Source of the DNA: a virus
Virus record (IMG/VR): IMGVR_UViG_3300017963_000327
Coordinates: 1-52,785 of that record
Direction: 5' to 3' (one strand)
Length of the DNA: 52,785 nt
The first letter of the stretch is position 1. Each line of letters opens with the position of its first letter. Positions 19,861-52,785 of the stretch are shown here, one piece after another. The notes under the pieces were generated by a model that was given only the letters and a program-made list of their open reading frames with translations, searched no databases and was not told the DNA's origin. The translations under genes and the position numbers were made by a program.

Positions 19861-19864
19861 CGTC

Positions 19865-40147: not shown

Positions 40148-40148
40148 A

Positions 40149-41307: not shown

Positions 41308-41390
41308 GGTGCCCTCTAAAAAGGCCGCCGCCGCCCTGGAAGGGGAGACAACCAGAACGACGACGGCCGACCGCAGACAATGATAGTACC
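41308..41390. other. short gap, no gene seen
   Basis: These 83 bases contain a GC-rich stretch with repeated GCCGCCGCC but no convincing gene or terminator. Confidence 0.4.
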
Positions 41391-42316: not shown

Positions 42317-42348
42317 GGCACCTTCCCATCTTGCGGTATTGCCTATAT

Positions 42349-42744: not shown

Positions 42745-43337
42745 CACAACCGCACCTCCGTTGACAGCAAGTACTTGTAGGTAGCTGTGCGGTTCCTGAC
42801 GTCGATTGTCACTTCGACGATGTCCTTCTTGTCCAGGATCTTACACAGCGTACTGAGGATTTTACTATCCCCCTTGGTGATCTTGACGTCATCGTGACGT
42901 TTGGACACGGCACGGGCAAACTGCAGATTGGAGTCGTTCAGATCGAATGGCTTACCGCCATCAGCAGAAGCAGCAGGAATCTTGACGTTGGGCTTCCCCT
43001 GTGTCTTCCTGATCTTCCTGATCACGGCAGTCTCCATGCCGGAACCGTATTTCTCCGACATGTGGTCTTTGATCTCCTTGTTGGTCAGTCCGCGTTCGAC
43101 CAAGACAGCGGCCTCGGCGCGCTTCTTCTTGGCGATCTCACGCGTGCTTGGGATACCGGCTCCCTTCCTGATGGCACAGATGGACTCTGGTAAGATCTTG
43201 ACGTCATACTTCTTTTTCACGGCCGAAATAATCTCATCGTGGATCCAACCATCATTGATCATCTTGATGACGAACTTTTCGACCGTGGTGTTGATGGCGC
43301 TCGGAAGGTTCTTCTTCGACTTCTTCTTCTTGGCCAT
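42744..43337 (-). CDS. basic HTH-like protein, unknown
   Basis: The product has 197 residues. It begins MAKKKKSKKNLPSAINTTV and contains two repeats of a helical pattern with hallmarks of helix-turn-helix DNA binding (GWIHDEIISAVKKKYDVKIL, RGLTNKEIKDHMSEKYGSG). The C-terminal part (SKILSTLCKILDKKDIVEV) resembles a small regulatory domain. It is preceded by the structured gap at 43338-43525, so it may be the first gene of a transcription unit and a regulator. The role is inferred. Confidence 0.65.
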   Translation of the reverse strand: MAKKKKSKKNLPSAINTTVEKFVIKMINDGWIHDEIISAVKKKYDVKILPESICAIRKGAGIPSTREIAKKKRAEAAVLVERGLTNKEIKDHMSEKYGSGMETAVIRKIRKTQGKPNVKIPAASADGGKPFDLNDSNLQFARAVSKRHDDVKITKGDSKILSTLCKILDKKDIVEVTIDVRNRTATYKYLLSTEVRL

Positions 43338-43525
43338 GATTCTCCCCTTGGCTGTAGGTACAGCTACATCCTACATCGATGAATCGCTATTTTTTCTAGG
43401 AAATTACTAGAATGCCGCCCCACTCCATCCAGACCCGGTTGGGGGGGAGAACCAAATACTGGAGTGGAGTGGTAGCGGCAATCGTGATGTTACCACGGCT
43501 GCACCGCTCGACTACTAGAAAATCT
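43338..43525. promoter_or_regulatory. structured intergenic region with long hairpin and paired CTAG repeats
   Basis: No gene is visible. A long imperfect hairpin spans 43413-43480: TGCCGC pairs with GCGGCA, then CCACTCCA with TGGAGTGG, then TCCAG with CTGGA, with one bulged G. The loop holds a GGTT/AACC inner stem and a run of seven G. Beside it, CTAG at 43396 and 43407 are spaced 11 bases, and a single CTAGAAAAT lies at 43515. On the minus strand the hairpin could end the upstream unit and the repeats could control the 43337 gene. Confidence 0.6.
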
Positions 43526-43783
43526 CTACTTGATACTCTGCAGCAGACCCTTGAAATGGTCTACCAGAATGTCGCGCTCGCCCGTCCATTCCGCAGCTGA
43601 GTTGAGGTCAGAGTCTTCGACCCATAGGCAAGGATTGGCACTCTCTAGGTGAGCGACGATATCGTCAGCAGCCTCTTTCACCTCAGTCAGTTTGCGCCCG
43701 CACTTGTCAAGCTTCTGCTTGCCCTCGGAGCACATTCTTCTGAGGCTCGAGACCTCATCGTACAGTTCTTCAGGACCAGTCAT
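43526..43783 (-). CDS. small coiled-coil protein, unknown
   Basis: The product has 85 residues and is helical, with EELYDEVSSLRRMCSEGKQ and RKLTEVKEAADDIVAHLES likely to form a coiled coil. It overlaps the upstream gene by four bases. No family is recognised. Confidence 0.6.
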   Translation of the reverse strand: MTGPEELYDEVSSLRRMCSEGKQKLDKCGRKLTEVKEAADDIVAHLESANPCLWVEDSDLNSAAEWTGERDILVDHFKGLLQSIK

Positions 43784-44040
43784 ATCGTCAACGCTATCCC
43801 ACAGCTTGTACAGATGTCAGCGGGTACGGCGTTCTTGCGGTACGGGAATGGCACGAAGTCTTCCCAGTCAATGATGGCTTCAATGGTACCGCCTTCGACA
43901 CTGGCCTGCATCAGTTCAACCGCACTCCGATCTTCCCAGACCATGGCAGGCTGCCAGCTGTTGCAACCGCACGCCGGACACGGACCCTTGCTCTCTATGC
44001 CGCAGTCACACATCGAGAGCTGCCAGACCGGCATCGACAA
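43780..44040 (-). CDS. zinc-ribbon small protein
   Basis: The 86-residue product has clustered Cys pairs (CDCGIESKGPCPACGC near the start and CTSCG near the end), suggesting one or two zinc sites. It overlaps the nuclease gene's end by 35 bases. It may bind nucleic acid or protein; the function is not known. Confidence 0.6.
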   Translation of the reverse strand: MSMPVWQLSMCDCGIESKGPCPACGCNSWQPAMVWEDRSAVELMQASVEGGTIEAIIDWEDFVPFPYRKNAVPADICTSCGIALTI

Positions 44041-44401
44041 GTGCTTGACCGAGATCGAAGTAGCTGCCGTCAGGGCCCTCTTCCTTCACCCAGACAGTGG
44101 CCAGGTAGCGTCCGTACTTGCCGGTCTTGTCCTTGACCGTGTTGATCCAGACTTCCTTGCCTTCGATCAAGTTCTTGGCGAACTCCGTTGCCTTCTTGCC
44201 GAGGGCGTATTCCTCCGAGTCCTTGCGAACACCGTAGGTCTCAGGAGCATTGATGCCATGGATGCGAATGCGCTCATGGACATGAACGTGCAGACCACAG
44301 TCAATGTCAAAATCCGCCGTATCACCGTCCACTACCCTCGTGCACGTCGCCTTGTACCAGAACAGTTTGTCTTCCACCGGTGCCTCACTGAAGGCCGACA
44401 A
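44006..44401 (-). CDS. staphylococcal nuclease-like (thermonuclease) protein
   Basis: The 131-residue product matches the SNase OB-fold. VVDGDT (23-28) gives the calcium-binding Asp, R46 and E54 lie in RIHGINAPE, and R98 lies in GKYGRYLA. All catalytic positions are present. There is no signal peptide, so it acts inside the cell, probably degrading host DNA or RNA or recycling nucleotides alongside the kinase. Confidence 0.9.
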   Translation of the reverse strand: MSAFSEAPVEDKLFWYKATCTRVVDGDTADFDIDCGLHVHVHERIRIHGINAPETYGVRKDSEEYALGKKATEFAKNLIEGKEVWINTVKDKTGKYGRYLATVWVKEEGPDGSYFDLGQALVDAGLAALDV

Positions 44402-44663
44402 CGATGTCCGCTGCGCGCACGAAGTCAGCCAGAACGCGGTCGGTGCACCAGCTCTTCTCGAGTAGATGGGCCAACCAGTCGCAGAATTCCTTCGGGTTTT
44501 TCAGGTGCTCAATCGGAACTTCGTACCTGCCGGCACCCCGCGCCATGCACGCGATGACGGTGCCCTGAACGCTCCAGACGTTACCCTCGCGCTCCAACTT
44601 CTGGGCTGGCGTCGCGCTGTAATGGGCCCTCATCGCCTCGATGATCTCTTGAGTGTCCGACAT
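44385..44663 (-). CDS. small protein, unknown, behind a TATAAAAAC promoter element
   Basis: The product has 92 residues (QEIIEAMRAHYSATPAQKLE, FCDWLAHLLEKSWCTDRV) and is mostly helical. It overlaps the nuclease gene by 17 bases. A TATAAAAAC element lies 18 bases upstream of the ATG with GAGGT between them. Confidence 0.6.
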   Translation of the reverse strand: MSDTQEIIEAMRAHYSATPAQKLEREGNVWSVQGTVIACMARGAGRYEVPIEHLKNPKEFCDWLAHLLEKSWCTDRVLADFVRAADIVVGLQ

Positions 44664-44811
44664 CTACCTCACCTGTACCTGTTTTTATAACTGTTTCTAT
44701 CTCGATGTTCAACGTCTTGACGTTGCACACTTCTTCGTGAGCGTTTGCAACATCTGGTTTTTCGAATTCAGCGCCACAGTTGCTGCAATGCCATATAAGA
44801 ATACCGTACAT
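44581..44811 (-). CDS. small C2HC zinc-finger protein
   Basis: The start is ATG 44811 with GAGGGG upstream. The visible finger is CSNCGAEFEKPDVANAHEEVC, a CxxC then H and C pattern. The frame continues to 44581, deep inside the next gene, where the sequence looks like shadow; the functional part is the first 50 residues. Likely a real small gene with a long overlap. Confidence 0.5.
   Translation of the reverse strand: MYGILIWHCSNCGAEFEKPDVANAHEEVCNVKTLNIEIETVIKTGTGEVDVGHSRDHRGDEGPLQRDASPEVGARG
44681..44689 (-). promoter_or_regulatory. TATAAAAAC promoter element
   Basis: On the minus strand TATAAAAAC lies 18 bases before the ATG at 44663, within the end of the overlapping zinc-finger gene. 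Spacing is nearly the same as for the elements at 30113 and 48259. Confidence 0.5.
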
Positions 44812-44822
44812 CTTGACCCCTC

Positions 44823-45182
44823 CTAATTGGAGGAAGCCAGACACTTCGACGCCAGCCTCTTGAGATCTGCATCCGTCAGCTGGGCAAATTGCTCGAAGGC
44901 CCAGATATCCGCTGGAAGCGTTGAGAATGCAAATTCGATCTCATTTTTTCTGAGGTCTATATTCACACACGTGGTACTGCTCTCCAACTGACGGAGACCC
45001 ACGTGCAAACTTGGGTTTGTTTGGTAGAGACGTATACACAACTTGCTGACTGCGTCGATCGGGTCCGGGCAGTTCCTCACGTCGTCTAGCACGGCACGCA
45101 CATCCTTCAACACGAGCCTGAAATTGGGCTCTGGAAGGTTGATGTTCATGCCTTCAGTACCAATCTTGAACGTGATATTCAT
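44823..45182 (-). CDS. small protein, unknown
   Basis: The product has 119 residues, with PEPNFRLVLKDVRAVLDDVR and PADIWAFEQFAQLTDADLKRL. It starts just after the CTAG-repeat gap and probably heads a transcription unit. No family is recognised. Confidence 0.6.
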   Translation of the reverse strand: MNITFKIGTEGMNINLPEPNFRLVLKDVRAVLDDVRNCPDPIDAVSKLCIRLYQTNPSLHVGLRQLESSTTCVNIDLRKNEIEFAFSTLPADIWAFEQFAQLTDADLKRLASKCLASSN

Positions 45183-45240
45183 TGCCAGACTATATCACCT
45201 ACAGGTGCTAGATTGGCTAGAGATTGGCTAGATAAAACGA
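45183..45240. promoter_or_regulatory. CTAG repeat cluster (three copies)
   Basis: On the plus strand CTAG occurs at 45208, 45217 and 45228 within repeats of the form GCTAGATTG, spaced 9 and 11 bases, just upstream of the leftward gene starting at 45182. Similar pairs occur in two other gaps. Likely an operator or promoter element set. The left end reaches the coding end of the adjacent zinc-site gene. Confidence 0.5.
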
Positions 45241-45482
45241 GGCGGCGTCTCGTTCCACTCTATACAGCCGTCAGTATTACACTTTGCCGATACGTGGCTA
45301 GTCCTGCCAACATGCCACCGAATAGTGCCTTGGCAAATCGGACAAGGTAGTGTGCCGCCAGTGCTCCTGGCTTTTGAACCTACCATCCTGATGATGGACT
45401 TCCTGATCTGAGTCTTGGCCTTGATCTCTTCTTCTGAATAGTACTTGGTCACTTCTAGGCCTAGTCCGTGCCGCCGGAACAA
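45228..45482 (-). CDS. small zinc-binding protein
   Basis: The product has up to 84 residues, probably from TTG 45482 with GAGG just upstream; a later start is possible. It has a split zinc site (LPCPICQGTIRWHV and CNTDGC) like the zinc ribbons in small phage proteins. It overlaps the upstream gene by 22 bases. Confidence 0.55.
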   Translation of the reverse strand: MFRRHGLGLEVTKYYSEEEIKAKTQIRKSIIRMVGSKARSTGGTLPCPICQGTIRWHVGRTSHVSAKCNTDGCIEWNETPPRFI

Positions 45483-45961
45483 GGTTCCTCACTGTAGAAG
45501 GGATTGAGCCCGCGGCAGCATGAGATCTTCGCGCCACAGCCAAGACACACGTCAAAAGCTGTGAGTGGTGCAGTGGCACCACAGATGATCTTCTGTTGCT
45601 CTTCGTTCATGTCGACTTGGTTCAGTTGAGTTGTAGTCTGTGAGATGTTGATCTTCTGTTGCTTCAGAGTACTGATGCTGAACTCAGGCGACACCACGAA
45701 GAACGGATGCTCTCCGATGACTCGTAGCCACCTGCGCCCATTACAGAAATTGCAGGTGTTCTTCGACAGACAGCTCATGATATCGGCAAGAGCGTCAGCT
45801 TGCTCAACCCACCGAGCATACTCGCTGTGCGTAAGCCCGAGGTACTCGTGGAGCGGTCTAGTTTCATCGTCACCACTGTCGTGCCACTCCTCGACGTAGT
45901 TGTCGATCGCATCCAGCGTGACGGCGCCGTGGGCATAGAGTTCAGCGAAGCTCTTAGGCAT
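45461..45961 (-). CDS. zinc-ribbon protein with phage LHEYLGL module
   Basis: The start is ATG 45961, with GGAGG seven bases upstream. The product has 166 residues. The N-terminal part (AIDNYVEEWHDSGDDETRPL then HEYLGLTHSEYARWVEQ) is a module seen in many small phage proteins of unknown function. CNFCNG (middle) and CLGCGAKISCC (end) suggest zinc binding. Confidence 0.65.
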   Translation of the reverse strand: MPKSFAELYAHGAVTLDAIDNYVEEWHDSGDDETRPLHEYLGLTHSEYARWVEQADALADIMSCLSKNTCNFCNGRRWLRVIGEHPFFVVSPEFSISTLKQQKINISQTTTQLNQVDMNEEQQKIICGATAPLTAFDVCLGCGAKISCCRGLNPFYSEEPCSGGTD

Positions 45962-46139
45962 CGTAATCCTCCGAGCCAATCAGAAAGCTCATCTGGACGA
46001 AGCACTGAGTACGGAAGTCTTCGTCATCTGACCTCAACGCGAGTCGAACAATGGCCTCTATCTTGTCCGCCATCTTCAACGCGTCGGGCCAGTTTGGCGG
46101 TATCTTGTTCGGCGTCGTCAAGCCATGACCCCTGGCCAC
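45954..46139 (-). CDS. small protein, unknown
   Basis: The product has 55-61 residues. The start may be GTG 46139 or TTG 46121, the latter overlapping the previous TGA. The core sequence is PPNWPDALKMADKIEAIVRL. It overlaps both neighbours slightly, in keeping with a compact early operon. Confidence 0.5.
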   Translation of the reverse strand: MARGHGLTTPNKIPPNWPDALKMADKIEAIVRLALRSDDEDFRTQCFVQMSFLIGSEDYDA

Positions 46140-46432
46140 ATGGCCCTGTCAAGCCGTTCCTTGAGATGGTTACGCTCGCCGGAGAGCGCCTGGTTCTGTA
46201 ACCTCAGACGCTTCACTTCGGCAATGAGCTTCGGCATGTTGGTGAGTGCCTGTACGATGTTGTCGGCATCGAAGTCGCGTGTCGGATCAACAACGCAGAC
46301 AGGCCCACAGGTGTCAGACTCGACCACAAGCATCTCGCTCTCGCTTGGCCACGGCATGACCCGATACGGACCCTCAGTGGCTCTGGCGATTTTGACTTCC
46401 ATGTCGAGCAACTCTTTGTCGCTGAAGCACAT
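46118..46432 (-). CDS. small protein, unknown
   Basis: The start is ATG 46432 with GAGG upstream; the frame upstream of it is only shadow. The product has 104 residues with the pattern MCFSDKELLDMEVKIARATEG, MLVVESDTCGPVCVVDPTRD and a C-terminal coiled coil. The middle resembles small phage proteins that track amino acid or nucleotide data, but no family is recognised. Confidence 0.6.
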   Translation of the reverse strand: MCFSDKELLDMEVKIARATEGPYRVMPWPSESEMLVVESDTCGPVCVVDPTRDFDADNIVQALTNMPKLIAEVKRLRLQNQALSGERNHLKERLDRAMWPGVMA

Positions 46433-46440
46433 AGCGTCCT

Positions 46441-46617
46441 CTACTCGCAGTAGTCCATGCAGATCATGAAGGCCTGGTCGCAATAAATATAGTCATGGTC
46501 TTCCAGGCAATCATGCTCTTCTTCTCTGCACGTCCTCTCGCAATAATCGGTTTGTTGATGCACTGGTACTGTTGCGCAACCGATGAACAACAGCACACTA
46601 GCGAGACTTAATCTCAT
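46441..46617 (-). CDS. small Cys-rich lipoprotein
   Basis: The start is ATG 46617 (MRLSLASVLLFIGCATV). The hydrophobic stretch ends in the lipobox LFIGC, so the protein should be lipidated at that Cys and anchored in the envelope. The mature part is about 45 residues with six or more Cys (DYCERTCREEEHDC, IYCDQAFMICMDYC), probably disulphide-bonded. Possible roles are an outer-membrane spanin partner or a superinfection-exclusion lipoprotein. Confidence 0.65.
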   Translation of the reverse strand: MRLSLASVLLFIGCATVPVHQQTDYCERTCREEEHDCLEDHDYIYCDQAFMICMDYCE

Positions 46618-47677
46618 TTTTCTCGAGGTCATAACGGGTCGAACACCTTGGACATTTATGGCCACCGCCCCAATGGTCTCGGACCAGCAGCTCGATGCAG
46701 TAGACACAACGCGACTTGCTCCAGTGGCACTGAGGACAGTCATGCGTGCCGGCTTCGATCCTCTCTACCAGTTTCTTCGGTAGTCTTGCCTTGCATTGAG
46801 GGCATTCTCGTGCTGGCTTCCACATTTCTTCGTAGGCATTCTGCTCTGCACCGTAAGATAGTGCAAATTCCTTGGATGCTTTGTCAGCAAATACGTTGAA
46901 TGCCTTGACAAGAGCCGTGAAGATCGGTTGCAGAGTCTTGTTCATCTGATCGGCCAAGTTGTTCAGAGACTTTGCCAAAGCATTGAGTGCACTCTGCGCT
47001 TCCTGGACGCCCTTGGAGAACTTTTCACTGTCGGCCGCGATGACGACCTCCAACGGCTCTTTGTTCTTTTTGTAGAGTTCGATCCTGACCTTCTTGGCGT
47101 CCTCCGCTGTGGGTACCATTGTTTTGTGTACCCTGCAGGCTGGGCAATCATCGTCACCAGTGCACTCGACGGTGAAGGAATTGGGGCCATTATTTGATGT
47201 GCTCTCATACGTCACGGGAATGAACCCGTGATCCTCTGCCCAGATGGACTCCAACGTGACAGCGATGTTGGCCGGCGTCAGAAGCGGTGTCATCGTCAAT
47301 CCATCAAGCTTGTGCTCTACTTCCGTCAGCAAGCTGGCATCAGCCTTCCTCTTCACTTCGTCAATGAAGTTGCCCGCAGCGAGAAATGTCTGGTACGCAA
47401 GATCAGCTGTGCTGATGCTGCCATTGGTCTCTTCGAGAAGTGGGTGAATTCCACGACCACAAGTATCAGATAGACGGCGCATCAACGTCTCAGCACTGTA
47501 GTCGACACACTTGAACAGGAAGTCGGTGAAGGCTTTTTCGATGCACTGGGTCTCACCGTCGAGATTCATGTGGACGTCCCACCAAAAGTCTGGACGCGGT
47601 TTCAGCTCGATGATGAAGATCATGCTGTCTTTGAACCGATGGTTGATCCGTGTCTTCAACGCGATGCGGTCGCCCAT
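46598..47677 (-). CDS. double zinc-ribbon protein, unknown
   Basis: The start is ATG 47677 with AGGAGG upstream; the frame is open to 47716 without a ribosome site. The product has 359 residues. Residues 1-170 form a mixed domain of unknown type, about 215-300 are helical and coiled-coil (GVQEAQSALNALAKSLNNLA), and the last 75 hold two zinc ribbons (CPQC, CPQC, CVYC, CPRC). A CxxxCPAC cluster lies near the middle (DDDCPACRVH). It may bind nucleic acid or host protein. It heads the leftward early operon opposite the CTAG repeats at 47723-47744. Confidence 0.65.
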   Translation of the reverse strand: MGDRIALKTRINHRFKDSMIFIIELKPRPDFWWDVHMNLDGETQCIEKAFTDFLFKCVDYSAETLMRRLSDTCGRGIHPLLEETNGSISTADLAYQTFLAAGNFIDEVKRKADASLLTEVEHKLDGLTMTPLLTPANIAVTLESIWAEDHGFIPVTYESTSNNGPNSFTVECTGDDDCPACRVHKTMVPTAEDAKKVRIELYKKNKEPLEVVIAADSEKFSKGVQEAQSALNALAKSLNNLADQMNKTLQPIFTALVKAFNVFADKASKEFALSYGAEQNAYEEMWKPARECPQCKARLPKKLVERIEAGTHDCPQCHWSKSRCVYCIELLVRDHWGGGHKCPRCSTRYDLEKNEIKSR

Positions 47678-47716
47678 GGATGCCTCCTTACTATTTGATA
47701 CAGCATGTGCGCCCAA

Positions 47717-47767
47717 ATCAGACTAGAAAATGGCTAGAATGTGGTAGACACGATCAGGAGGTGTTCC
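47717..47767. promoter_or_regulatory. divergent promoter region with tandem 11-bp CTAG repeats
   Basis: Two tandem 11-mers, CTAGAAAATGG and CTAGAATGTGG, lie head to tail at 47723-47744, between the leftward zinc-ribbon gene and the rightward gene at 47768. Eleven bases is about one helical turn, so both copies face the same side of the DNA. An operator for a phage regulator is the simplest reading. Confidence 0.6.
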
Positions 47768-48190
47768 ATGAGCGACAGCAAACCATCGAAGACCAGCACG
47801 CATGTCCTTGGAAATCCACCGAACTTCGGTGAAGTGAGCGTCTCAGCCTATGCGATCGGGGACGAGAATCTCTCCACCCCCGTCTACATGGCGCCGTCTC
47901 TACCTTATAGGACGACACCCCCGAACACCGATTTCCCCATCCCAGAGGGTCTTGAGTTCCGAGGGCCCAGAGGAGCCCTCACCAGGGAAGGGTTCGAGGC
48001 CATGGTCGACCTGATCACCGAAGAAAAAGTGAAGGTGATGCACAGGGACGCAGAGATCACCCAGTTGAAGAAGCTGATCCAGGAGATCTACAGCCTGGTC
48101 TGCCCTGGATGGGCCGGCGACTTCGGGAACCCGGATCAGCTCAAGGGTGCTATCTCACGCCGTCTGGCGGACCTCACCGAAAAAAAGTGA
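47768..48190 (+). CDS. small protein, unknown
   Basis: The start is ATG 47768 with AGGAGG upstream. The product has 140 residues: a disordered N-terminal third (PSKTSTHVLGNPPNFGEVSV), then FRGPRGALTREGFEAMVDL and a C-terminal helical part with CPGWAGDF. It is the first gene of the rightward operon, but the gap of 97 bases and the promoter at 48259 suggest Ro60 is also transcribed separately. Confidence 0.6.
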   Translation: MSDSKPSKTSTHVLGNPPNFGEVSVSAYAIGDENLSTPVYMAPSLPYRTTPPNTDFPIPEGLEFRGPRGALTREGFEAMVDLITEEKVKVMHRDAEITQLKKLIQEIYSLVCPGWAGDFGNPDQLKGAISRRLADLTEKK

Positions 48191-48210
48191 TCCGCCCCTG
48201 ATTTTTCTGA

Positions 48211-48256
48211 TTGACAAGTACCCCACAAGTACCCTACTTCTGTACCCTACAAGTAC
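48211..48256 (+). promoter_or_regulatory. GTACCC repeats upstream of Ro60
   Basis: GTACCC occurs at 48218, 48229 and 48242 and GTACGT at 48253, spaced 11, 13 and 11 bases, within a sequence of the form AAGTACCCTAC. TTGACA sits at the left edge (48211-48216). The repeats end two bases before the TATAAAAC element. They look like binding sites for a regulator of the Ro60-Y RNA unit. Confidence 0.5.
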
Positions 48257-48258
48257 GT

Positions 48259-48266
48259 TATAAAAC
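48259..48266 (+). promoter_or_regulatory. TATAAAAC promoter element for the Ro60-Y RNA unit
   Basis: TATAAAAC lies 22 bases before the Ro60 ATG, with GGAG seven bases before the ATG. The same element sits 18-22 bases ahead of two leftward genes. It resembles the TATAAATA late promoters of T4-like phages, so it may be read by a phage sigma factor encoded outside this window. Confidence 0.5.
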
Positions 48267-48287
48267 ATTCAGGTACGGAGCAGGATC

Positions 48288-50021
48288 ATGCAGACCTTCA
48301 CCGAGGCAACGCGCTGGCGGAAGCCGACCAAGCGCAAGGGCAACGGCCGCAACTACGCCCAGCAGCGCCAGGTCATCCCAGGCAAGAGCCGGCTCATGAC
48401 TTCGACCTCGAGCGGCACCAAGGCCTTCAAGGTGGACGACTGGGGTCGCCTCGCCCGCTTCCTGATCCTGGGAGCAGACAAGCCGACCTTCTACGCGACG
48501 AAGCGCCAGCTGGTGCGGGACAACGCGAGGGTGGTCGAGCGCTGCATCAAGGAAGACGGTATCCGTACCGTGGACCTGATCGCGGAAGTGTCGATTCAGG
48601 GCTCGGCGCCGAACAACGACCCGGCCCTGTTTGCGCTGGCAATGTGCGCGACCCTGGGTGGCCTCCACACCCGCCAGTACGCCCTCGGGCGCCTGTCGGA
48701 CGTGGCGCGGATCGGAACGCACCTGTTCCACTTCGTGGCCTACTGCGAGGGTCTCGGTCACGGCTGGGGCCGGAACATGCGACGTGCGATCCGTGGGTGG
48801 TACAACGAGAAGGCGCCGGACAAGCTGGCGTATCAGATCCTGAAGTACAAGCAGCGTGACGGCTGGTCGCACAAGGATCTGCTCGCTCTGGCTCACCCGC
48901 GCACTTCGAACAAGGAACGTGATGCCATCTACCGGTACATCGTGGCCGGCATCGATGGTCTGGGCAAGCGTACTGTCCTGAAGCACAACGGCCGCCGGAA
49001 GGTCCGCAAGACCTACCCGGACGTGTCACGTCACCTGCCGGCGCAGATCTTCGCCGCGCACGACGTGCACAAGGTCAGCAAGCGGAAGGCCAAGCAGCTC
49101 ATCGAAGAGCACCGCATGACCCATGAGATGGTGCCGAACGAGCTGAAGAACGACCCAGAGGTCTGGGAGATCATGCTCGAGACGATGCCCATCGGAGCGA
49201 TGGTGCGGAACCTCGGCAAGATGACCAGCATCGGCCTCCTGGACCGGATGTCCAGGGCCTCGAAGCTGGTGATCGACCGGCTGGGCGACATGGAGCGGAT
49301 CCGTCGGGCGCGTCTGCACCCGATCGAGTTCCTCAAGGCCAACCGTGTCTACGGTGCCGGCCGCGGGGACAAGGGATCGCTGTGCTGGGATCCGGTGCGC
49401 GGGATCGTCCGAGCACTGGACGACGGGTTCTACCTGGCCTTCGGCGCGATCGAGCCGAGCGGCGTGAACACTGGTCTGTTCATCGACGTCTCTGGTTCGA
49501 TGGCATGGGACACCTCACGCGTGAAGTCGATGGCGAACATGACCGCACGTGAGCTGTCAGGTGCCATGGCCCTGGTGACGGCGAACGTGGAGCCGTACTG
49601 GGAGATCATCGCCTTCTCCGGCGGCTACGACTCGCTCGAGGAGATCCCGATCGAGCCCGGCATGAAGCTGGACACGGTCGTGAACAGGATGGAGCGTATG
49701 CGAGCCGGCAGCACGAACCTGTCGCTACCGTTCGAGTACGCACGTGGACGCGGTGTCCCGATCGAGACGTTTATCGTCTACACAGACAACGAGACGAATC
49801 ACTTCGGCTCGCTGCATCCGTCGGAGGCACTGCGCAGGTACCGGAAAGAGACCGGCATCGACGCGAAGCTGATCGTGGTCGGCATGGTGGCGAACGACAT
49901 CTCGATCGCTGACCCGACCGATCACGGCATGTTGGATGTAGTTGGGTTCGACACGAACGCTCCGTCAGTGATGGCGGACTTCGCGAAGGGCGCCTACGAG
50001 ATCGACGTCGAGCAGGGCTGA
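48288..50021 (+). CDS. Ro60 (Rsr)-like TROVE/vWA RNA-binding protein
   Basis: The product has 577 residues. Residues about 40-340 form the ring-shaped TROVE domain of HEAT-like helices (ALFALAMCATLGGLHTRQYA, LAYQILKYKQRDGWSHKDLL, MVRNLGKMTSIGLL). Residues about 390-577 form a von Willebrand A domain with an intact metal site: D400, S402 and S404 in DVSGSM, T476 in GSTN and D500 in YTDNE. Ro60 binds the ends of misfolded RNAs in its central hole and Y RNAs on its outer edge; in Deinococcus the Y RNA tethers it to PNPase, while in other bacteria Ro joins RNA repair and rRNA maturation. Seven Y RNA-like genes start ten bases after the stop, so protein and RNA partners form one unit. Homologues are known in a few phages. 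Confidence 0.95.
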   Translation: MQTFTEATRWRKPTKRKGNGRNYAQQRQVIPGKSRLMTSTSSGTKAFKVDDWGRLARFLILGADKPTFYATKRQLVRDNARVVERCIKEDGIRTVDLIAEVSIQGSAPNNDPALFALAMCATLGGLHTRQYALGRLSDVARIGTHLFHFVAYCEGLGHGWGRNMRRAIRGWYNEKAPDKLAYQILKYKQRDGWSHKDLLALAHPRTSNKERDAIYRYIVAGIDGLGKRTVLKHNGRRKVRKTYPDVSRHLPAQIFAAHDVHKVSKRKAKQLIEEHRMTHEMVPNELKNDPEVWEIMLETMPIGAMVRNLGKMTSIGLLDRMSRASKLVIDRLGDMERIRRARLHPIEFLKANRVYGAGRGDKGSLCWDPVRGIVRALDDGFYLAFGAIEPSGVNTGLFIDVSGSMAWDTSRVKSMANMTARELSGAMALVTANVEPYWEIIAFSGGYDSLEEIPIEPGMKLDTVVNRMERMRAGSTNLSLPFEYARGRGVPIETFIVYTDNETNHFGSLHPSEALRRYRKETGIDAKLIVVGMVANDISIADPTDHGMLDVVGFDTNAPSVMADFAKGAYEIDVEQG

Positions 50022-50030
50022 CACGAGTTT

Positions 50031-50091
50031 GAGGGCCGGACGGCTTGGGTTATCTTGCAACGATACCCCCCAGGCCAAACACTTTGCCCTC
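50031..50091 (+). ncRNA. Y RNA-like 1 (short, 61 nt)
   Basis: GAGGGC at the 5' end pairs with GCCCTC at the 3' end. The inner stem GGCTTGGG (50042-50049) pairs with CCCAGGCC (50069-50076) with one G-U pair. Between the stems lie CGGA on the 5' side and AAACACTTT on the 3' side, followed by the GGGTTATC element. This matches the Ro-binding helix of Y RNAs (CCGA bulge, GUUAUC, CACUU). The apical loop is short and there is no tRNA-like module. It begins ten bases after the Ro60 stop. Confidence 0.85.
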
Positions 50092-50100
50092 TTCAAGTTT

Positions 50101-50219
50101 GGCTGACGTAGCGATGTGGAAGGACACATGAGAGACGGCAGTAGCCCAAGGCTAGGTGTGTGCCGCCCCGTTTAGAGGAATCCTTGGGGAGCTGGTATCA
50201 AGGCCAGTCTGCGTCAGTC
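50101..50219 (+). ncRNA. structured RNA of unknown family between Y RNA 1 and 2
   Basis: The ends pair (GGCTGACG 50101-50108 with CGTCAGTC 50212-50219). Inside are ATGTG/CACAT (50114-50129), CGGCA/TGCCG (50136-50165) enclosing TAGCC/GGCTA, and CCTTG/CAAGG (50182-50203) whose loop reads AGCTGGTA like a tRNA D-loop. It lacks a TTCGA T-loop and the Y RNA GAGGGC/GCCCTC ends. It could be a degenerate Y RNA module, a new small RNA, or a processing element. No function is assigned. Confidence 0.5.
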
Positions 50220-50236
50220 GTTCTATGGAAGGATTT

Positions 50237-50347
50237 GTGGGCCGAATGGATTGCAGGGTTATCGATGGTTCGAATCCACCTGGCGGGTCTAAACCACCCG
50301 CTATCGCCTAGCTGGTTAAGGCACCCCTGTACCAACAACTTGCCCAC
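50237..50347 (+). ncRNA. Y RNA-like 2 (long, 111 nt, with permuted tRNA-like module)
   Basis: The outer stem is GTGGGC/GCCCAC, the inner stem TTGCAGGG/CCCTGTA, with CCGA and GGGTTATC as in the other copies. The insert runs T-arm first (GATGG, loop TTCGAAT, CCACC with one mismatch), then a seven-pair acceptor-like stem (TGGCGGG/CCCGCTA) closed by the loop TCTAAACCA, then a D-arm (GCCT, AGCTGGTTA, AGGC). The anticodon arm is missing and the Y stem takes its place. This is the order expected of bacterial YrlA-type Y RNAs, which mimic tRNA. Confidence 0.88.
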
Positions 50348-50364
50348 TTTGAATTATGGGAGTT

Positions 50365-50492
50365 GCGGGCCGTAGACTGAACGTTATCTAAGCGCGCAAT
50401 TTTGCGCTTATAGCTCAGTTGGTAGAGCGCCGGGGGTAGCCTCGGAGGTCGAGGGTTCGAATCCCTAACGACGTTCTTTCAGCTTTGTCCGC
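50365..50492 (+). ncRNA. Y RNA-like 3 (long, 128 nt, different tRNA-like permutation)
   Basis: The outer stem is GCGGGC/GTCCGC with one G-U pair, followed by the Y RNA bulge and GTTATC. The insert starts with a closed acceptor hairpin (TAAGCGC, loop GCAATTTT, GCGCTTA, all seven pairs), then a D-arm (GCTC, AGTTGGTA, GAGC), an anticodon-like arm (CCGGG/CTCGG), AGGTC and a T-arm (loop TTCGAAT). The Y stem is therefore joined between the T-arm and the 3' acceptor strand, unlike copies 2, 6 and 7. The inner Y stem is weaker. Confidence 0.8.
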
Positions 50493-50514
50493 GCCCTACC
50501 TATTAGAGGAGTTT

Positions 50515-50577
50515 GAGGGCCGGAAGTCTTGGGTTATCACTTCGGATGATGCTTCCCAGGACACTAACTTTGCCCTC
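50515..50577 (+). ncRNA. Y RNA-like 4 (short, 63 nt)
   Basis: The outer stem is GAGGGC/GCCCTC. The inner stem GTCTTGGG (50526-50533) pairs with CCCAGGAC (50555-50562). CCGGA and GGGTTATC lie on the 5' side and ACTAACTTT on the 3' side. It ends in a small apical hairpin and has no tRNA-like module. It is very close in plan to copy 1. Confidence 0.87.
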
Positions 50578-50596
50578 GTTTCTATACACTGAGTTT

Positions 50597-50663
50597 GTGG
50601 GCCGGAGGCAACGGGTTACCTTTCATTTGGAGAAAACACACCCATCGCCAACAACTTGCCCAC
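50597..50663 (+). ncRNA. Y RNA-like 5 (short, 67 nt)
   Basis: The outer stem is GTGGGC/GCCCAC. The inner stem (GGCAACGGG with CCCATCGCC) has two mismatches, and the conserved element reads GGGTTACC rather than GGGTTATC. AACAACTT lies before the 3' strand, as in copy 2. There is no tRNA-like module. Confidence 0.82.
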
Positions 50664-50682
50664 TTCGTTTTGAGAGGAGTTT

Positions 50683-50813
50683 GCGGGCCGTACGAAATAG
50701 GTTACCAATGCAAACTGTAGGTCGCGGGTTCGAGTCCCGTCATCGGCACCATGCCGATGTAGATCAGCTGGTAGATCAACAGTGGTTACACGCCTACTTC
50801 ACTTTTTGCCCGC
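50683..50813 (+). ncRNA. Y RNA-like 6 (long, 131 nt, permuted tRNA-like module with ACCA)
   Basis: The outer stem is GCGGGC/GCCCGC and the inner stem GAAATAGG/CCTACTTC (one mismatch). The module is a near-canonical tRNA opened at the anticodon loop: anticodon-type stem ACTGT/ACAGT (50714-50718, 50779-50783), AGGTC variable loop, T-arm (GCGGG, TTCGAGT, CCCGT), perfect acceptor stem CATCGGC/GCCGATG, TA, and D-arm (GATC, AGCTGGTA, GATC). Between the acceptor strands lie only ACCA plus one T (50748-50752). The order is 3' half then 5' half, a circular permutation. Confidence 0.9.
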
Positions 50814-50835
50814 GTTTCAAAGGACACTATGGTTT

Positions 50836-50967
50836 GAGGGCCGGACGCACGTTGGGTTATCCACTCATAATGGAGAGGTCGCAGGTTCGAATCCTGTCGT
50901 GGCTTTAGCGAGTCACGTAGCTCAGTTGGTCAGAGCGCTAAACCCCCAATGTCAACTATTTGCCCTC
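50836..50967 (+). ncRNA. Y RNA-like 7 (long, 132 nt, with permuted tRNA-like module)
   Basis: The outer stem is GAGGGC/GCCCTC and the inner stem ACGTTGGG/CCCAATGT. The module has an AGGTC variable-type segment, T-arm (GCAGG, TTCGAAT, CCTGT), acceptor-like stem CGTGGCT/AGTCACG with loop TTAGCG, TA, and D-arm (GCTC, AGTTGGTCA, GAGC). The anticodon-type stem is poorly kept. Order and topology match copies 2 and 6. GTTATC and CAACTATTT flank the Y stem. Confidence 0.88.
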
Positions 50968-50984
50968 GTTTTGAAGTAGAAGAG

Positions 50985-51275
50985 ATGAACACGAGAGAGA
51001 CACGCATGTTGACAGAAGCAATCAGAGCAAACACGCGCGCCCTCCTCGAGAACACGAAGCTCTTGAAACGCTTCACGTCGAAGCAGGACCGCAAGAGCGA
51101 TCTCGATGAGAGACGCAACCGACTACTGGCGAACATCCCGTACCTGAAGTCAGAGCTGAAGCAGTTCCGGCGTCAGGAGCTGGTGATGCTCGCTGCAGCC
51201 CTGGGGGTCAGGAACACATCAGTACCGAACACACGCCTCGTGGAAGTGATCTTCAGAGAACAGAAGCGAGCGTGA
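50985..51275 (+). CDS. small SAP/Rho-N-like protein
   Basis: The start is ATG 50985; an earlier in-frame ATG lies inside Y RNA 7. The product has 96 residues: a basic coiled coil (TEAIRANTRALLENTKLLKRF), then RRQELVMLAAALGVRNTSVP followed by LVEVIFREQKR. The latter resembles the small SAP/Rho-N-terminal helix-extended-loop motif that binds nucleic acid. It is coupled to the next gene by a GTGA overlap. Confidence 0.65.
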   Translation: MNTRETRMLTEAIRANTRALLENTKLLKRFTSKQDRKSDLDERRNRLLANIPYLKSELKQFRRQELVMLAAALGVRNTSVPNTRLVEVIFREQKRA

Positions 51276-51472
51276 AGAAGCTGTACATCTGGTTCTGCGA
51301 CAAGTGCAACTCGTTCGTACCAGCGACGTGTTGTCTGGCAACGAGCAAGAAGGCAGCATGGGACGGCGGTCAAGAACACCTGGTGAAGACGCACGACTTG
51401 ACTCACCACGCTACCGACATGGAGTTGTTCAAGGGCCGCGTCGTCATCTTGGAAGAGAAGACGAAAAAATAG
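51272..51472 (+). CDS. small zinc-finger-like protein
   Basis: The GTG start at 51272 overlaps the previous stop. The product has 66 residues. CDKCNSF and CC near the start and HLVKTHDLTHH later could form a zinc site. It lies between the Y RNA array and the tRNA cluster. The function is unknown. Confidence 0.6.
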   Translation: MKKLYIWFCDKCNSFVPATCCLATSKKAAWDGGQEHLVKTHDLTHHATDMELFKGRVVILEEKTKK

Positions 51473-51525
51473 CTTGACAGATCGATAACCGATGCATCAC
51501 GATGAAAACTTCGTCGGAGGATGCT

Positions 51526-51639
51526 ATGCACCGCGCAATTCAGATCACCACCATTCCCATCAAGCGCGACGGACGATTGTCCTTCCTCTGTTCCCTTTCG
51601 TCCCTATTTCTCTATTCCAATTCCGGCTGGCGACTGTAG
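51526..51639 (+). CDS. possible 37-residue peptide gene
   Basis: ATG 51526 has GGAGG five bases upstream and the frame ends with TAG at 51639, just before the first tRNA. The peptide begins MHRAIQITTIPIKRDGRLSF and has a hydrophobic middle. A good ribosome site is the only positive evidence. The rest of 51473-51651 shows no other feature. Confidence 0.35.
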   Translation: MHRAIQITTIPIKRDGRLSFLCSLSSLFLYSNSGWRL

Positions 51640-51651
51640 ACGCATCTTTGC

Positions 51652-51735
51652 GGATCGGTAGCTGAGCTGGTTTAGCAGCGGGCTGTTAACCCGTGCCCTC
51701 GGGCTACGTGGGTTCGAGTCCCACCCGATCCGCCA
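51652..51735 (+). tRNA. tRNA-Asn (GTT) with enlarged variable arm
   Basis: Acceptor GGATCGG/CCGATCC, D-stem GCTG/TAGC, anticodon arm GCGGG-CTGTTAA-CCCGT, T-arm GTGGG/CCCAC. Discriminator G and encoded CCA at 51733-51735. The variable region is 13 bases (51695-51707) and forms a GCCC/GGGC hairpin, whereas Asn tRNAs normally have five bases. Confidence 0.92.
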
Positions 51736-51738
51736 TGT

Positions 51739-51807
51739 GGGCGCCAGGCTATGGCAGCCAAGCGGGCTCCAACCCCGCAGGACAGGGTTCGATTCCTTGG
51801 GCGCTCG
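51739..51807 (+). tRNA. tRNA-Trp (CCA) with short D-arm
   Basis: Acceptor GGGCGCC/GGCGCTC, anticodon arm GCGGG-CTCCAAC-CCCGC, T-arm CAGGG/CCTTG. The D-arm is only GGCT-ATGGC-AGCC, lacking the GG of normal D-loops, and the variable loop is four bases. CCA is not encoded. It may be a reduced or degraded tRNA. Confidence 0.8.
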
Positions 51808-51822
51808 TAGAAAGAAAAATGT

Positions 51823-51898
51823 GGACTCGTCGCTGAGTTGGTTCAGGCGCCTGGTTGAAGCCCAGGAGACGTTGGTTCGATTCCAACCGAGTCCACCA
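51823..51898 (+). tRNA. tRNA-Phe (GAA)
   Basis: Acceptor GGACTCG/CGAGTCC, anticodon arm CCTGG-TTGAAGC-CCAGG, T-arm GTTGG/CCAAC. Discriminator A and encoded CCA (51896-51898). Canonical. Confidence 0.95.
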
Positions 51899-51901
51899 AA
51901 C

Positions 51902-51977
51902 GCGGGCATAGCCCAACTGGTAGGAGGCGACGGTTTTAAGGTCCGTTCAGTGGTGGGTTCGAATCCCCCTGCCCGTA
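51902..51977 (+). tRNA. tRNA with Leu anticodon TAA, class I variable loop
   Basis: Acceptor GCGGGCA/TGCCCGT (G-T end pair). The anticodon arm has a T-T mismatch and loop TTTAAGG, giving anticodon TAA after U33. The variable region is only six bases, whereas bacterial Leu tRNAs have a long arm. Discriminator A; no encoded CCA. The T-stem has one mismatch. Confidence 0.75.
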
Positions 51978-52046
51978 TTCAAGGAAACGAACGAAAACTG
52001 AAATAAGGAGGTCGCCTCGAGCCCATGTTTCAAAAGATCAGCACAT

Positions 52047-52129
52047 GTCAGAGTGGCGGAATTGGTAGACGCGCAGGCCCGAGGAGCCTGTACTTCGGTG
52101 TGAGGGTTCGACTCCCTCCTCTGACACCA
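52047..52129 (+). tRNA. tRNA-Leu (GAG), C at position 33
   Basis: Acceptor GTCAGAG/CTCTGAC, D-arm with GGAATTGGTAGAC as in Leu tRNAs, anticodon arm CAGGC-CCGAGGA-GCCTG, T-arm GAGGG/CCCTC, encoded CCA. The variable arm is of the longer class II type (TACTTCGGTG). The base before the anticodon is C instead of the almost invariant U33. Confidence 0.88.
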
Positions 52130-52132
52130 TGT

Positions 52133-52223
52133 GTAGCGGTGGCTGAGCGGTTGAAAGCACCAGACTGTAGATCTGGAGATCCGAAAGGGTCCAACGGTGG
52201 TTCGAATCCATCCCGCTACACCA
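52133..52223 (+). tRNA. tRNA-Tyr (GTA)
   Basis: Acceptor GTAGCGG/CCGCTAC, anticodon arm CCAGA-CTGTAGA-TCTGG, long variable arm (GATCC..GGGTC) as expected for bacterial Tyr, T-loop TTCGAAT, discriminator A, encoded CCA. Confidence 0.95.
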
Positions 52224-52226
52224 TAT

Positions 52227-52302
52227 GCCCGTCTACCCCAATCTGGTACGAGGGGCTCGGCTCAGACCCGAGATGTTCCCGGTTCGAATCCGGGGGCGGG
52301 CA
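52227..52302 (+). tRNA. tRNA with Leu anticodon CAG, class I variable loop
   Basis: Acceptor GCCCGTC/GGCGGGC, D-stem CCCC/GGGG, anticodon arm CTCGG-CTCAGAC-CCGAG (anticodon CAG after U33), variable loop ATGTT (five bases), T-arm CCCGG/CCGGG, discriminator A, no encoded CCA. A five-base variable loop is not normal for bacterial Leu tRNA. Confidence 0.82.
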
Positions 52303-52311
52303 AAATGAAAA

Positions 52312-52336
52312 GCCCCTGGCCACAGTGACCAGGGGC
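52312..52336 (-). terminator. hairpin terminator facing the minus strand within the tRNA cluster
   Basis: GCCCCTGG pairs with CCAGGGGC (eight pairs, nine-base loop). On the minus strand it is followed by TTTTCATTTT. On the plus strand no T-run follows, so it should stop leftward antisense transcription. Confidence 0.65.
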
Positions 52337-52407
52337 ACCCTCGCTCCTCGGGGGAAGGACAACGAAGGTGAGCTGATCGTAGCAGGAGGCGAACATAGTT
52401 CAAGTGT

Positions 52408-52490
52408 GCCGGGGTGGCGGAATTGGAATACGCGCTGGCCTCAAGCACCAGTGCTTCGGCATGAGGGTTCGACTCCCTCTCCCGGCACCA
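52408..52490 (+). tRNA. tRNA-Leu (CAA)
   Basis: Acceptor GCCGGGG/TCCCGGC, D-arm GGCGGAATTGGAATACGC (Leu-like), anticodon loop CTCAAGC, class II variable arm TGCTTCGGCA, T-arm GAGGG/CCCTC, encoded ACCA. The anticodon stem has a C-A mismatch at its loop end. Confidence 0.92.
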
Positions 52491-52491
52491 T

Positions 52492-52583
52492 GGAAGGTTG
52501 GCCGATGTTGGGATGGCGCCTGCTTGGAAAGCAGAGACCGGCCCGAGAGGGTCGCAGAGGTTCGATTCCTCTACCTTCCGCCA
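52492..52583 (+). tRNA. tRNA-Ser (GGA)
   Basis: Acceptor GGAAGGT/ACCTTCC, anticodon loop TTGGAAA, long variable arm (GACCGGCCCGAGAGGGTC), T-arm AGAGG/CCTCT, discriminator G, encoded CCA. Canonical class II. Confidence 0.95.
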
Positions 52584-52584
52584 T

Positions 52585-52659
52585 GGGCAGTGGGTCTGTC
52601 GGGATGGATGCTGGATTGCAACCCCAGAGAAACTGGTTCGACTCCAGTACTGCCCTCCA
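52585..52659 (+). tRNA. tRNA-Cys (GCA)
   Basis: Acceptor GGGCAGT/ACTGCCC, anticodon arm CTGG..CCAG with loop TTGCAAC, discriminator T as expected for Cys, encoded CCA. It abuts the A-run of the terminator. Confidence 0.93.
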
Positions 52660-52690
52660 AAAAAAGAGGGGCCCTCGAGGGCCCCTCTTT
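52659..52690. terminator. strong terminator at the end of the tRNA cluster
   Basis: AGAGGGGCCC and GGGCCCCTCT pair perfectly around TCGA. Seven A lie on the left and three T on the right, so the stronger terminator faces the minus strand, ending the 52709 gene. It can also act, more weakly, on the plus-strand tRNA transcript. Confidence 0.85.
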
Positions 52691-52708
52691 AGCAGTCACC
52701 TCAGTTGA

Positions 52709-52785
52709 CTAGGCGGCTTCGAGCAGCACGAAGTAGATGTCGCCGCGGAACTCGACCCAGTCGCCGACGGAACCGGCCGTGTACG
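52709..52785 (-). CDS. C-terminus of an unknown protein, cut by window edge
   Basis: The last 24 codons are visible, ending GDWVEFRGDIYFVLLEAA before TAG. They look like the end of a compact beta-rich domain. The gene continues beyond the right edge. The strong terminator follows 19 bases downstream of its stop. Confidence 0.65.
   Translation of the reverse strand, partial: YTAGSVGDWVEFRGDIYFVLLEAA

What the first reader, a model, noticed from the sequence alone, without database searches (positions are those of the whole stretch)
48288..50967. Phage Ro60 gene with a tandem array of seven Y RNA-like genes
A complete TROVE/vWA Ro60 gene is followed ten bases later by seven RNAs that share GAGGGC/GCCCTC-type ends, the CCGA-type bulge, GGGTTATC and CACTTT-type loops, all features of the Ro-binding helix of Y RNAs. 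Bacteria usually have one or a few Y RNAs; Ro60 with a Y RNA-like partner has been noted in some mycobacteriophages, but I know of no seven-copy array with several architectures. Inference: one Ro60 may be programmed with different Y RNA adaptors to handle host RNAs, phage tRNAs or nucleases during infection.
Basis: partly seen in the sequence, partly recalled or inferred. Interest (0 to 1): 0.95.

Follow-up and report, generated by a model that had tools for sequence, protein, structure and literature searches.

The report
Phage Ro60 with seven Y RNAs
A bacterial virus carries a gene for the RNA-binding protein Ro60 followed by seven small RNA genes built like the Y RNAs that Ro60 binds, some with a tRNA look-alike inside; similar sets turn up beside many Ro60 genes of phages and bacteria, which suggests one protein working with several RNA partners.

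Summary
A complete Ro60 gene (48288-50021) is followed nine bases later by seven Y RNA-type units (50031-50967) on the same strand. Two covariance models trained without window sequence find six of the seven (best E per copy 4.7e-6 or lower); Y3 rests on inspection and partial matches. Three copies are short (Y1, Y4, Y5), three carry a circularly permuted tRNA-like module (Y2, Y6, Y7), and Y3 a tRNA-like module in canonical arm order.

The array is not exceptional in kind. In 74 viral and 80 bacterial Ro60 loci (from the best 80 of 445 and of 392), 32 and 58 carry two or more units; maxima 10 and 6. By the same rule the window counts six. All 421 model matches lie on the Ro60 strand. Rfam's curated cut-offs report no Y RNA in the window or 15 other loci, and three units coincide with annotated tRNAs in phage records.

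Best explanation: one phage Ro60 served by several Y RNAs, short ones gating it, tRNA-mimic ones tethering it to a host enzyme. Identity is well supported; function is inferred and untested. Novelty: new variant of a known kind.

The parts
48288..50021 (+). Ro60 (TROVE + vWA) gene, 577 aa
   Evidence: Pfam, PDB phmmer, PHROG 850; D400, S402, S404, T476, D500 invariant in 15 phage and viral Ro60
50031..50091 (+). Y1, short Y RNA, no tRNA-like module
   Evidence: R1 37.3 bits, E 4.7e-6; R2 25.9 bits, E 2.3e-5 in 12.8 kb, but not listed at E<=0.01 in the whole-window R2 run with default filters
50098..50226 (+). structured unit without the Y core, same AGTTTG leader; role unknown
   Evidence: fold -51.4 kcal/mol, z -2.8; only itself found among the held loci and window
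50237..50347 (+). Y2, long Y RNA with permuted tRNA-like module (T-arm, acceptor hairpin, D-arm); linker before the T-arm missing, T-stem with one mismatch
   Evidence: R2 42.7 bits, E 8.5e-10, 3.5e-9 over the whole window; R1 E 0.0075; RNAfold alone does not form the T-arm
50365..50492 (+). Y3, long Y RNA with tRNA-like module in canonical order: capped acceptor hairpin, D-arm, anticodon-like hairpin, T-arm
   Evidence: fold of the exact unit, but with 5-10 flanking bases the best fold differs and lacks the Y helix; R2 partial 22 bits over acceptor and D-arm (E 2.5e-4, 0.001), little above a real tRNA gene in the same run (19.1 bits); Rfam tRNA 27.6 bits, below 29; R1 8.8 bits, E 5.8
50515..50577 (+). 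Y4, short Y RNA
   Evidence: R1 39.7 bits, E 1.4e-6; Rfam RF01656 23.9 bits, E 0.027, below cut-off 38
50597..50663 (+). Y5, short Y RNA
   Evidence: R1 44.3 bits, E 1.5e-7; RF01656 31.1 bits, E 3.4e-4, below cut-off 38
50683..50813 (+). Y6, long Y RNA with permuted tRNA-like module; 7-bp acceptor-type stem closed by ACCAT
   Evidence: R2 83.3 bits, E 1.6e-20; Rfam YrlA 42.5 bits, E 7.3e-8, below cut-off 69; free fold lacks T- and D-arm, constrained fold with them is 1.1 kcal/mol weaker
50836..50967 (+). Y7, long Y RNA with permuted tRNA-like module
   Evidence: R2 101.2 bits, E 2.8e-25; Rfam YrlA 49.1 bits, E 9e-10, below cut-off 69; free fold shows all arms
51652..52659 (+). ten tRNA genes downstream (context)
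   Evidence: ARAGORN 10; Rfam tRNA 9

Best explanation
The locus encodes a phage Ro ribonucleoprotein with one protein and several RNA partners. Each of the seven RNAs is closed by the same kind of helix (paired ends, bulged C, CGN facing UUG, second helix, GUUAYC), which is the Ro60-binding helix of Y RNAs. The rest differs. Short Y RNAs (Y1, Y4, Y5) would occupy, stabilise and gate Ro60. Long ones (Y2, Y6, Y7, and Y3 in another arm order) show a tRNA-like face to a tRNA-binding host enzyme. The likeliest mechanism: Ro60 carrying a long Y RNA is tethered to a host 3' to 5' exonuclease such as PNPase and steers decay of structured or damaged RNA during infection, while short ones keep a gated reserve. 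Shown here: gene identity, helix conservation and covariation, module types, strand and linkage to Ro60. Inferred: expression, binding, tethering and role in infection.
For: Protein family and solved relatives. Models R1 (42 short units) and R2 (28 long permuted units), none from the window, find 6 of 7 copies. Of sites picked by the 5' motif alone near 28 Ro60 genes, 87 lie on the Ro60 strand and 16 on the other; their 5' arms fit their own downstream sequence (mean 31.7) better than foreign ones (24.0, sd 0.46, highest of 5000 permutations 25.7). The acceptor hairpin of the long class, not used in choosing those units, is 94.8% paired with two-sided changes at 7 of 7 pairs. All 421 matches at the thresholds are on the Ro60 strand (for 397, table for 24), and none of the 303 merged units lies inside the gene. 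Of 18 viral contigs found by a Y motif alone, 13 encode Ro60. The Deinococcus precedent (Y RNA tethers Ro60 to PNPase) was read in passages of PMC7790460 and PMC4726728.
Against: No expression or binding data. No RNase_PH-domain (PNPase type) or RtcB gene in 15 viral records, so the partner is assumed to be the host's. Y3 is weak in both models and its fold depends on the ends chosen; Y6 and Y2 modules do not form fully in free folding. In the pairing test Y3 and Y5 do not stand out (0.138 and 0.425 of foreign partners fit as well). No copy reaches the Rfam YrlA cut-off. 19 of 74 viral and 10 of 80 bacterial loci have no unit by the models. The 18 contigs are fewer lineages (L007 with L010, and L012 with L022, look alike), and chance matches of that motif were not calculated. 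Training units were chosen with a pairing-based descriptor whose geometry I set after looking at window copies among others, so outer-helix counts (helices 1-2) lean towards the structure. Not all Y-like RNAs bind Ro60: a passage of PMC4726728, cut at its start, reports other C. elegans stem-bulge RNAs as not found with the worm Ro60 (my reading).
Confidence: 0.55

Rival explanations
1. Decoys: the tRNA-like Y RNAs, stabilised by Ro60, titrate host tRNA-directed enzymes (defence nucleases or toxins acting on acceptor, D- or T-arm, or tRNA-modifying enzymes) and so protect the phage's own tRNAs.
For: Modules differ in acceptor sequence from unit to unit while keeping T- and D-arm signatures; the array ends 0.7 kb before ten phage tRNA genes; inhibition of an anticodon nuclease by YrlA was suggested, not shown, in a passage of PMC7790460.
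Against: The permuted modules lack an anticodon arm and a free CCA end, so enzymes that need these would not see their target; like modules occur in bacterial loci; three of seven copies have no module.
Confidence: 0.2
2. Dosage without division of labour: several Y RNAs simply raise Y RNA level to stabilise or gate Ro60, and the apical modules are exchangeable passengers.
For: Unit number varies (0-10 viral, 0-6 bacterial); loss of Ro60 lowers Y RNA levels in other systems (review passage), so the two depend on each other.
Against: Three architectures stand side by side in one array; in seven bacterial loci a short unit lies next to Ro60 with longer ones further off (L141, L146, L147, L151, L156, L163, L181); acceptor hairpins covary, so the modules are under selection.
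Confidence: 0.2
3. The repeats are decayed tRNA genes or chance hairpins in a tRNA-rich region rather than Y RNAs.
For: T- and D-arm sequences are tRNA-like; Rfam tRNA gives Y3 27.6 bits; R2 also matches parts of real tRNA genes weakly.
Against: ARAGORN calls no tRNA in the array; short copies have no tRNA sequence; terminal helix and CGN/UUG element in all seven; models trained elsewhere find six.
Confidence: 0.03

Closest known systems
YrlA bacterial Y RNAs (Rfam RF02553)
   Same: terminal helix plus permuted T-arm / acceptor hairpin / D-arm module; Y7 aligns over its whole length and Y6 over the tRNA-like part; YrlA's tRNA-like domain read in a passage of PMC8394870
   Different: below the Rfam cut-off; several per locus; Y2 lacks the linker and has a mismatched T-stem; Y3 has another arm order; three copies lack the module
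Deinococcus Ro60 (Rsr) with Y RNA and PNPase (RYPER)
   Same: Ro60 fold (2nvo_A, E 9.9e-89) and Y RNAs with a lower Ro-binding stem (passages of PMC4726728 and PMC7790460)
   Different: phage-encoded; more RNAs; no RNase_PH-domain gene in 15 viral records; tethering untested
Animal Y RNAs and nematode RNA family RF01656
   Same: Y5 and Y4 align with RF01656 through GGGUUA and AACUU; that this is a stem-bulge (Y-related) family is recalled
   Different: below that family's cut-off; arrayed phage genes; likeness to human Y4 is recalled, not tested
Phage Ro60 with Y RNA (mycobacteriophages; Listeria phage CKA15)
   Same: phage Ro60 with nearby Y RNA candidates; mycobacteriophage Y RNAs are cited, and in CKA15 three abundant RNA regions near an Rsr-like gene are proposed to include one or more Y RNAs (passages of PMC12282133); Flabslab has three units by descriptor
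   Different: CKA15 could be another multi-unit case but is a proposal there; no array anatomy or tRNA-module classes in the passages read

Membership tests
Ro60 / Rsr protein | TROVE domain plus C-terminal vWA domain | tested here: met
   PF05731 2.5e-41, PF25045 2.4e-50
Ro60 / Rsr protein | conserved RNA-binding and metal-site residues | tested here: met
   KYKQR.GWSHKDLL shared with solved chains 9nen and 1yvp; D400, S402, S404, T476, D500 invariant in 15; the role of these residues is recalled
Y RNA | Ro-binding helix: terminal stem, bulged C, CGN/UUG, second stem, GUUAYC | tested here: met
   7 of 7 by inspection; 6 of 7 by window-free models, Y3 not
Y RNA | linkage to a Ro60 gene on the same strand | tested here: met
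   9 nt after the stop codon; 421 of 421 matches in 154 other loci on the Ro60 strand
Y RNA | bound by Ro60 in cells | not testable with these tools
   needs pull-down
YrlA (Rfam RF02553) | score at or above the curated cut-off of 69 bits | tested here: not met
   best 49.1 bits; no YrlA at cut-off in 15 other Ro60 loci either
YrlA | permuted tRNA-like module (T-arm, acceptor, D-arm) | tested here: met
   Y6 and Y7; Y2 with missing linker and one T-stem mismatch. Not met by Y3 (other order) or by Y1, Y4, Y5 (no module), so membership is claimed for Y2, Y6, Y7 only
functional tRNA | cloverleaf with open acceptor and anticodon | tested here: not met
   ARAGORN: no tRNA before 51652 in the window, none in Y3 alone

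The most novel reading that the evidence does not exclude
Ro60 arrays in phages and bacteria are a general multi-adaptor system: one Ro60 ring is loaded with one of several Y RNAs, and the apical domain (none, permuted tRNA, canonical-order tRNA with capped acceptor, or a cloverleaf built on the Y helix) decides which tRNA-recognising enzyme is brought in or diverted. Phages carry up to ten units and include forms in which the Y helix enters the tRNA fold at another point than in YrlA.
Probability: 0.3. Interest if true: 0.85.

Novelty: new variant of a known kind. Interest (0 to 1): 0.6.

Why it matters
Ro60 and Y RNAs matter in autoimmunity and RNA quality control, yet how one Ro60 uses several Y RNAs is, as far as I know, open. 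A compact phage array with short and tRNA-mimic members, and models that mark 303 units at 154 further Ro60 loci (training units included), make the question testable in culturable phages such as Microbacterium phage FuzzBuster (three units) or Mycobacterium phage Flabslab (three units). It also shows that Rfam's curated cut-offs report no Y RNA at the 16 sources tested and that at least three units coincide with annotated tRNAs.

Tried and rejected
Rfam at curated cut-offs gave no Y RNA family in the window or in 15 other loci. Alignments of the seven copies mis-set the inner stems of Y3 and Y6, so no model was built from them. A first descriptor had 21 hits at 28 or more in 0.28 Mb of shuffled sequence. 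The stricter one still has 33 hits at 32 or more in 1.65 Mb shuffled, gives one hit in the window outside the array (32106-32203) and misses Y5; final counts therefore use the covariance models. Counted by descriptor instead, 47 of 80 viral and 64 of 80 bacterial loci have at least one unit and 30 and 49 at least two; the opposite strand gives 4 and 11 hits against 107 and 151. A relaxed motif with wrong spacing found nothing and was corrected. Sigma-70 promoter scan of 47700-51700: none; phage promoters are not covered by it. The 5' acceptor strands of the three permuted window modules against 840 ARAGORN tRNAs of the held loci: one exact match (Y6, a Thr tRNA of L116), no clear source. Set aside: intron or ribozyme (no such Rfam match up to E 10 over 49990-51000), decayed tRNA genes, chance hairpins. 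RtcB and RNase_PH in 15 viral records: none. Structure prediction was not run.

Rows dropped: R1 used 42 of 105 non-redundant short candidates (the top 45 less L180, L143 and L197, left out by hand). R2 used 28 of 35 long candidates (seven left out by hand: L012, L124:6176, L147, L155, L184, L201, L207), so the 94.8% is for those 28. Of 80 viral loci, 6 were left out (L057 own virus; L078, L082, L128, L135 contigs already held; L126 like L124). One search had 174 matches, 150 of them aligned, 131 of those full-length by my filter; I added 16 full-length rows by coordinates from its table, 12 beyond the 150 and 4 already among them. In one search, 78 of 83 were full-length. One search counts include the units the models were trained on. 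One search used 28 loci with Ro60 in the stretch (L010, L013, L022, L040 left out as near-duplicates, L012 because its Ro60 lay outside); at least six of its 87 sites are a second reading of the same unit a few bases away.
Full report
What is there. The window is a 52,785-base virus record from a tailed phage: terminase, portal, head maturation protease and major head protein families match. A 147.7-kb IMG/VR contig (L001) is identical over the 9,498 bases compared. Ro60 (48288-50021) has TROVE and vWA domains and matches solved Ro60 chain 9nen_A over residues 39-566, E 1.2e-99. Nine bases after its stop codon the first of seven RNA units begins; the last ends at 50967. Small open reading frames and ten tRNA genes follow.

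Common part of the seven units. Each has a terminal stem (5 of 5 pairs), then C-CGNA, an inner stem, GUUAYC, a variable interior, the inner stem's partner, and UUG before the terminal stem's partner. Pair 2 of the terminal stem is A-U in three, U-A in two and C-G in two copies; inner stems differ in sequence yet pair 5/5, 7/7, 7/8, 7/9 or 8/8. This is the layout of the Ro60-binding helix of Y RNAs; the comparison with human Y RNAs is recalled. Rfam, below its curated cut-offs, aligns YrlA with Y7 (E 9e-10) and Y6 (7e-8) and nematode family RF01656 with Y5 (3.4e-4) and Y4 (0.027).

Different part. Y1, Y4 and Y5 are 61-67 nt with a plain loop. Y6 and Y7 hold T-arm, then an acceptor-type hairpin, then D-arm, that is, a tRNA body opened at the anticodon side; Y2 has the same order without the linker before the T-arm and with one mismatch in the T-stem. 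Y3 holds a capped acceptor-type hairpin, D-arm, an anticodon-like hairpin and T-arm. Folding energy alone does not settle this: Y7 folds freely with all arms, Y6 only under constraint (-45.4 against -46.5 kcal/mol), the T-arm of Y2 did not form, and Y3 folds otherwise when 5-10 flanking bases are included. Units like Y3 occur in L007 and L124 and less clearly in L011, and in L136. The simple pattern test found none among 160 bacterial descriptor hits, but ARAGORN calls tRNAs inside bacterial units of L177 and L211, so I do not claim that canonical order is phage-only. L129 shows a fourth form, a cloverleaf (ARAGORN tRNA-Phe) whose acceptor stem is the Y inner helix.

Models without window sequence. 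R1 was built from 42 short units and R2 from 28 long permuted units. R1 over the whole window has Y5, Y4, Y1 and Y2 as its four best matches (E 1.5e-7, 1.4e-6, 4.7e-6, 0.0075); Y7 and Y3 are at E 1.8 and 5.8, among noise. R2 over 40000-52785 finds Y7 (101.2 bits), Y6 (83.3), Y2 (42.7), Y4 (31.3), Y5 (26.4) and Y1 (25.9); Y3 only through its acceptor and D-arm part (22.0), little above a match inside a real tRNA pair (19.1). Over the whole window with default filters R2 lists seven matches at E<=0.01: Y7, Y6, Y2, Y4, Y5, the Y3 part and that tRNA match; Y1 is absent. So six copies stand on independent models and Y3 on inspection plus partial matches. The descriptor that chose training units was tuned with window copies in view, which is a mild dependence.

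Is the pairing real? Two tests do not use pairing for selection. First, near 28 Ro60 genes, 87 sites matched the 5' motif on the Ro60 strand and 16 on the other. Own 3' sequence fits better than foreign (31.7 against 24.0, sd 0.46; highest of 5000 permutations 25.7); 55 of 87 beat 95% of foreign partners where 4.4 are expected. At least six of the 87 are second readings of a unit. In the window Y1, Y2, Y4, Y6 and Y7 stand out; Y3 (0.138) and Y5 (0.425) do not. Second, the acceptor hairpin in 28 long units pairs in 94.8% of cells with two-sided changes at 7 of 7 pairs.

How common. A 23-base motif found 19 stretches on 18 viral contigs; 13 of 18 encode Ro60, 5 do not. Starting from Ro60, 445 viral and 392 bacterial relatives were found and the best 80 of each fetched. 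With R2 at E<=0.001 and R1 at E<=0.01, 74 viral loci hold 123 units: 55 have at least one, 32 at least two, maximum 10 (L127, two of them 3.4 kb upstream of Ro60). Eighty bacterial loci hold 180: 70 at least one, 58 at least two, maximum 6 (L141). Five viral and four bacterial units lie more than 2.5 kb away; training units are included. By the same rule the window counts six. All 421 matches are on the Ro60 strand (397 by script; 24 read from the table). By descriptor, named phages carry sets too: Flabslab three, FuzzBuster three, Trina five, Mareelih six, Sixama five, or six at a lower threshold. The window is near the top of a continuum.

Known and not known. The primary papers on bacterial Y RNAs were not held. 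Passages read: PMC12282133 cites mycobacteriophage Y RNAs and proposes that one or more of three abundant RNA regions near an Rsr-like gene of a Listeria phage are Y RNAs; PMC8394870 describes YrlA's tRNA-like domain and RYPER; PMC9569102 and PMC8190616 report yrlA in mycobacteria and in one prophage; PMC7824862 and PMC7765460 mention Ro60-type proteins in jumbo phages; PMC7790460 gives the rsr-yrlBA operon; PMC4726728 and PMC11277228 are reviews; PMC11208441 reports a TROVE protein in Borgs. Eight full-text searches listed nothing whose title, abstract start or passages read describe multi-unit Y RNA arrays in phages; the library lacks most subscription papers, so this is weak evidence. The tRNA-mimic module and phage Ro60 with Y RNA are known; the arrays, their mixed architectures and the canonical-order form look unreported in what I could read.

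Mechanism. In Deinococcus, Y RNA tethers Ro60 to PNPase and gates substrates (passages). No RtcB or RNase_PH-domain gene was found in 15 viral records including the 147.7-kb one, while controls rang in 9 and 12 of 14 genomes; several of those records are fragments. I therefore favour host-enzyme tethering by long Y RNAs and gating or storage by short ones; decoy action and simple dosage remain open. Nothing here shows expression or binding.

Noticed in passing
window 50098-50226: Structured unit inside the array with the same AGTTTG leader, a long closing stem and several hairpins, but no Y core; only itself found in the held loci.
   Followed up: partly
L035 3988-4066, L033 3386-3462, L040 6667-6755: Annotated tRNA-Thr, tRNA-Arg and tRNA-Leu genes in phage records coincide or overlap with long Y RNA units.
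   Followed up: partly
L129 3577-3690: A tRNA cloverleaf called by ARAGORN whose acceptor stem is the Y RNA inner helix.
   Followed up: partly
L036 6413-6469: Pistol ribozyme match (56.8 bits) within the tRNA region of Gordonia phage GMA2.
   Followed up: no
window 40149-40697: Pyruvoyl-dependent arginine decarboxylase gene (Pfam 4.3e-59) in the phage.
   Followed up: no
window 19036-19926: Patatin-like phospholipase domain, Pfam 1.3e-19.
   Followed up: no
window 2562-13430: Open reading frame of 3622 aa on the minus strand.
   Followed up: no
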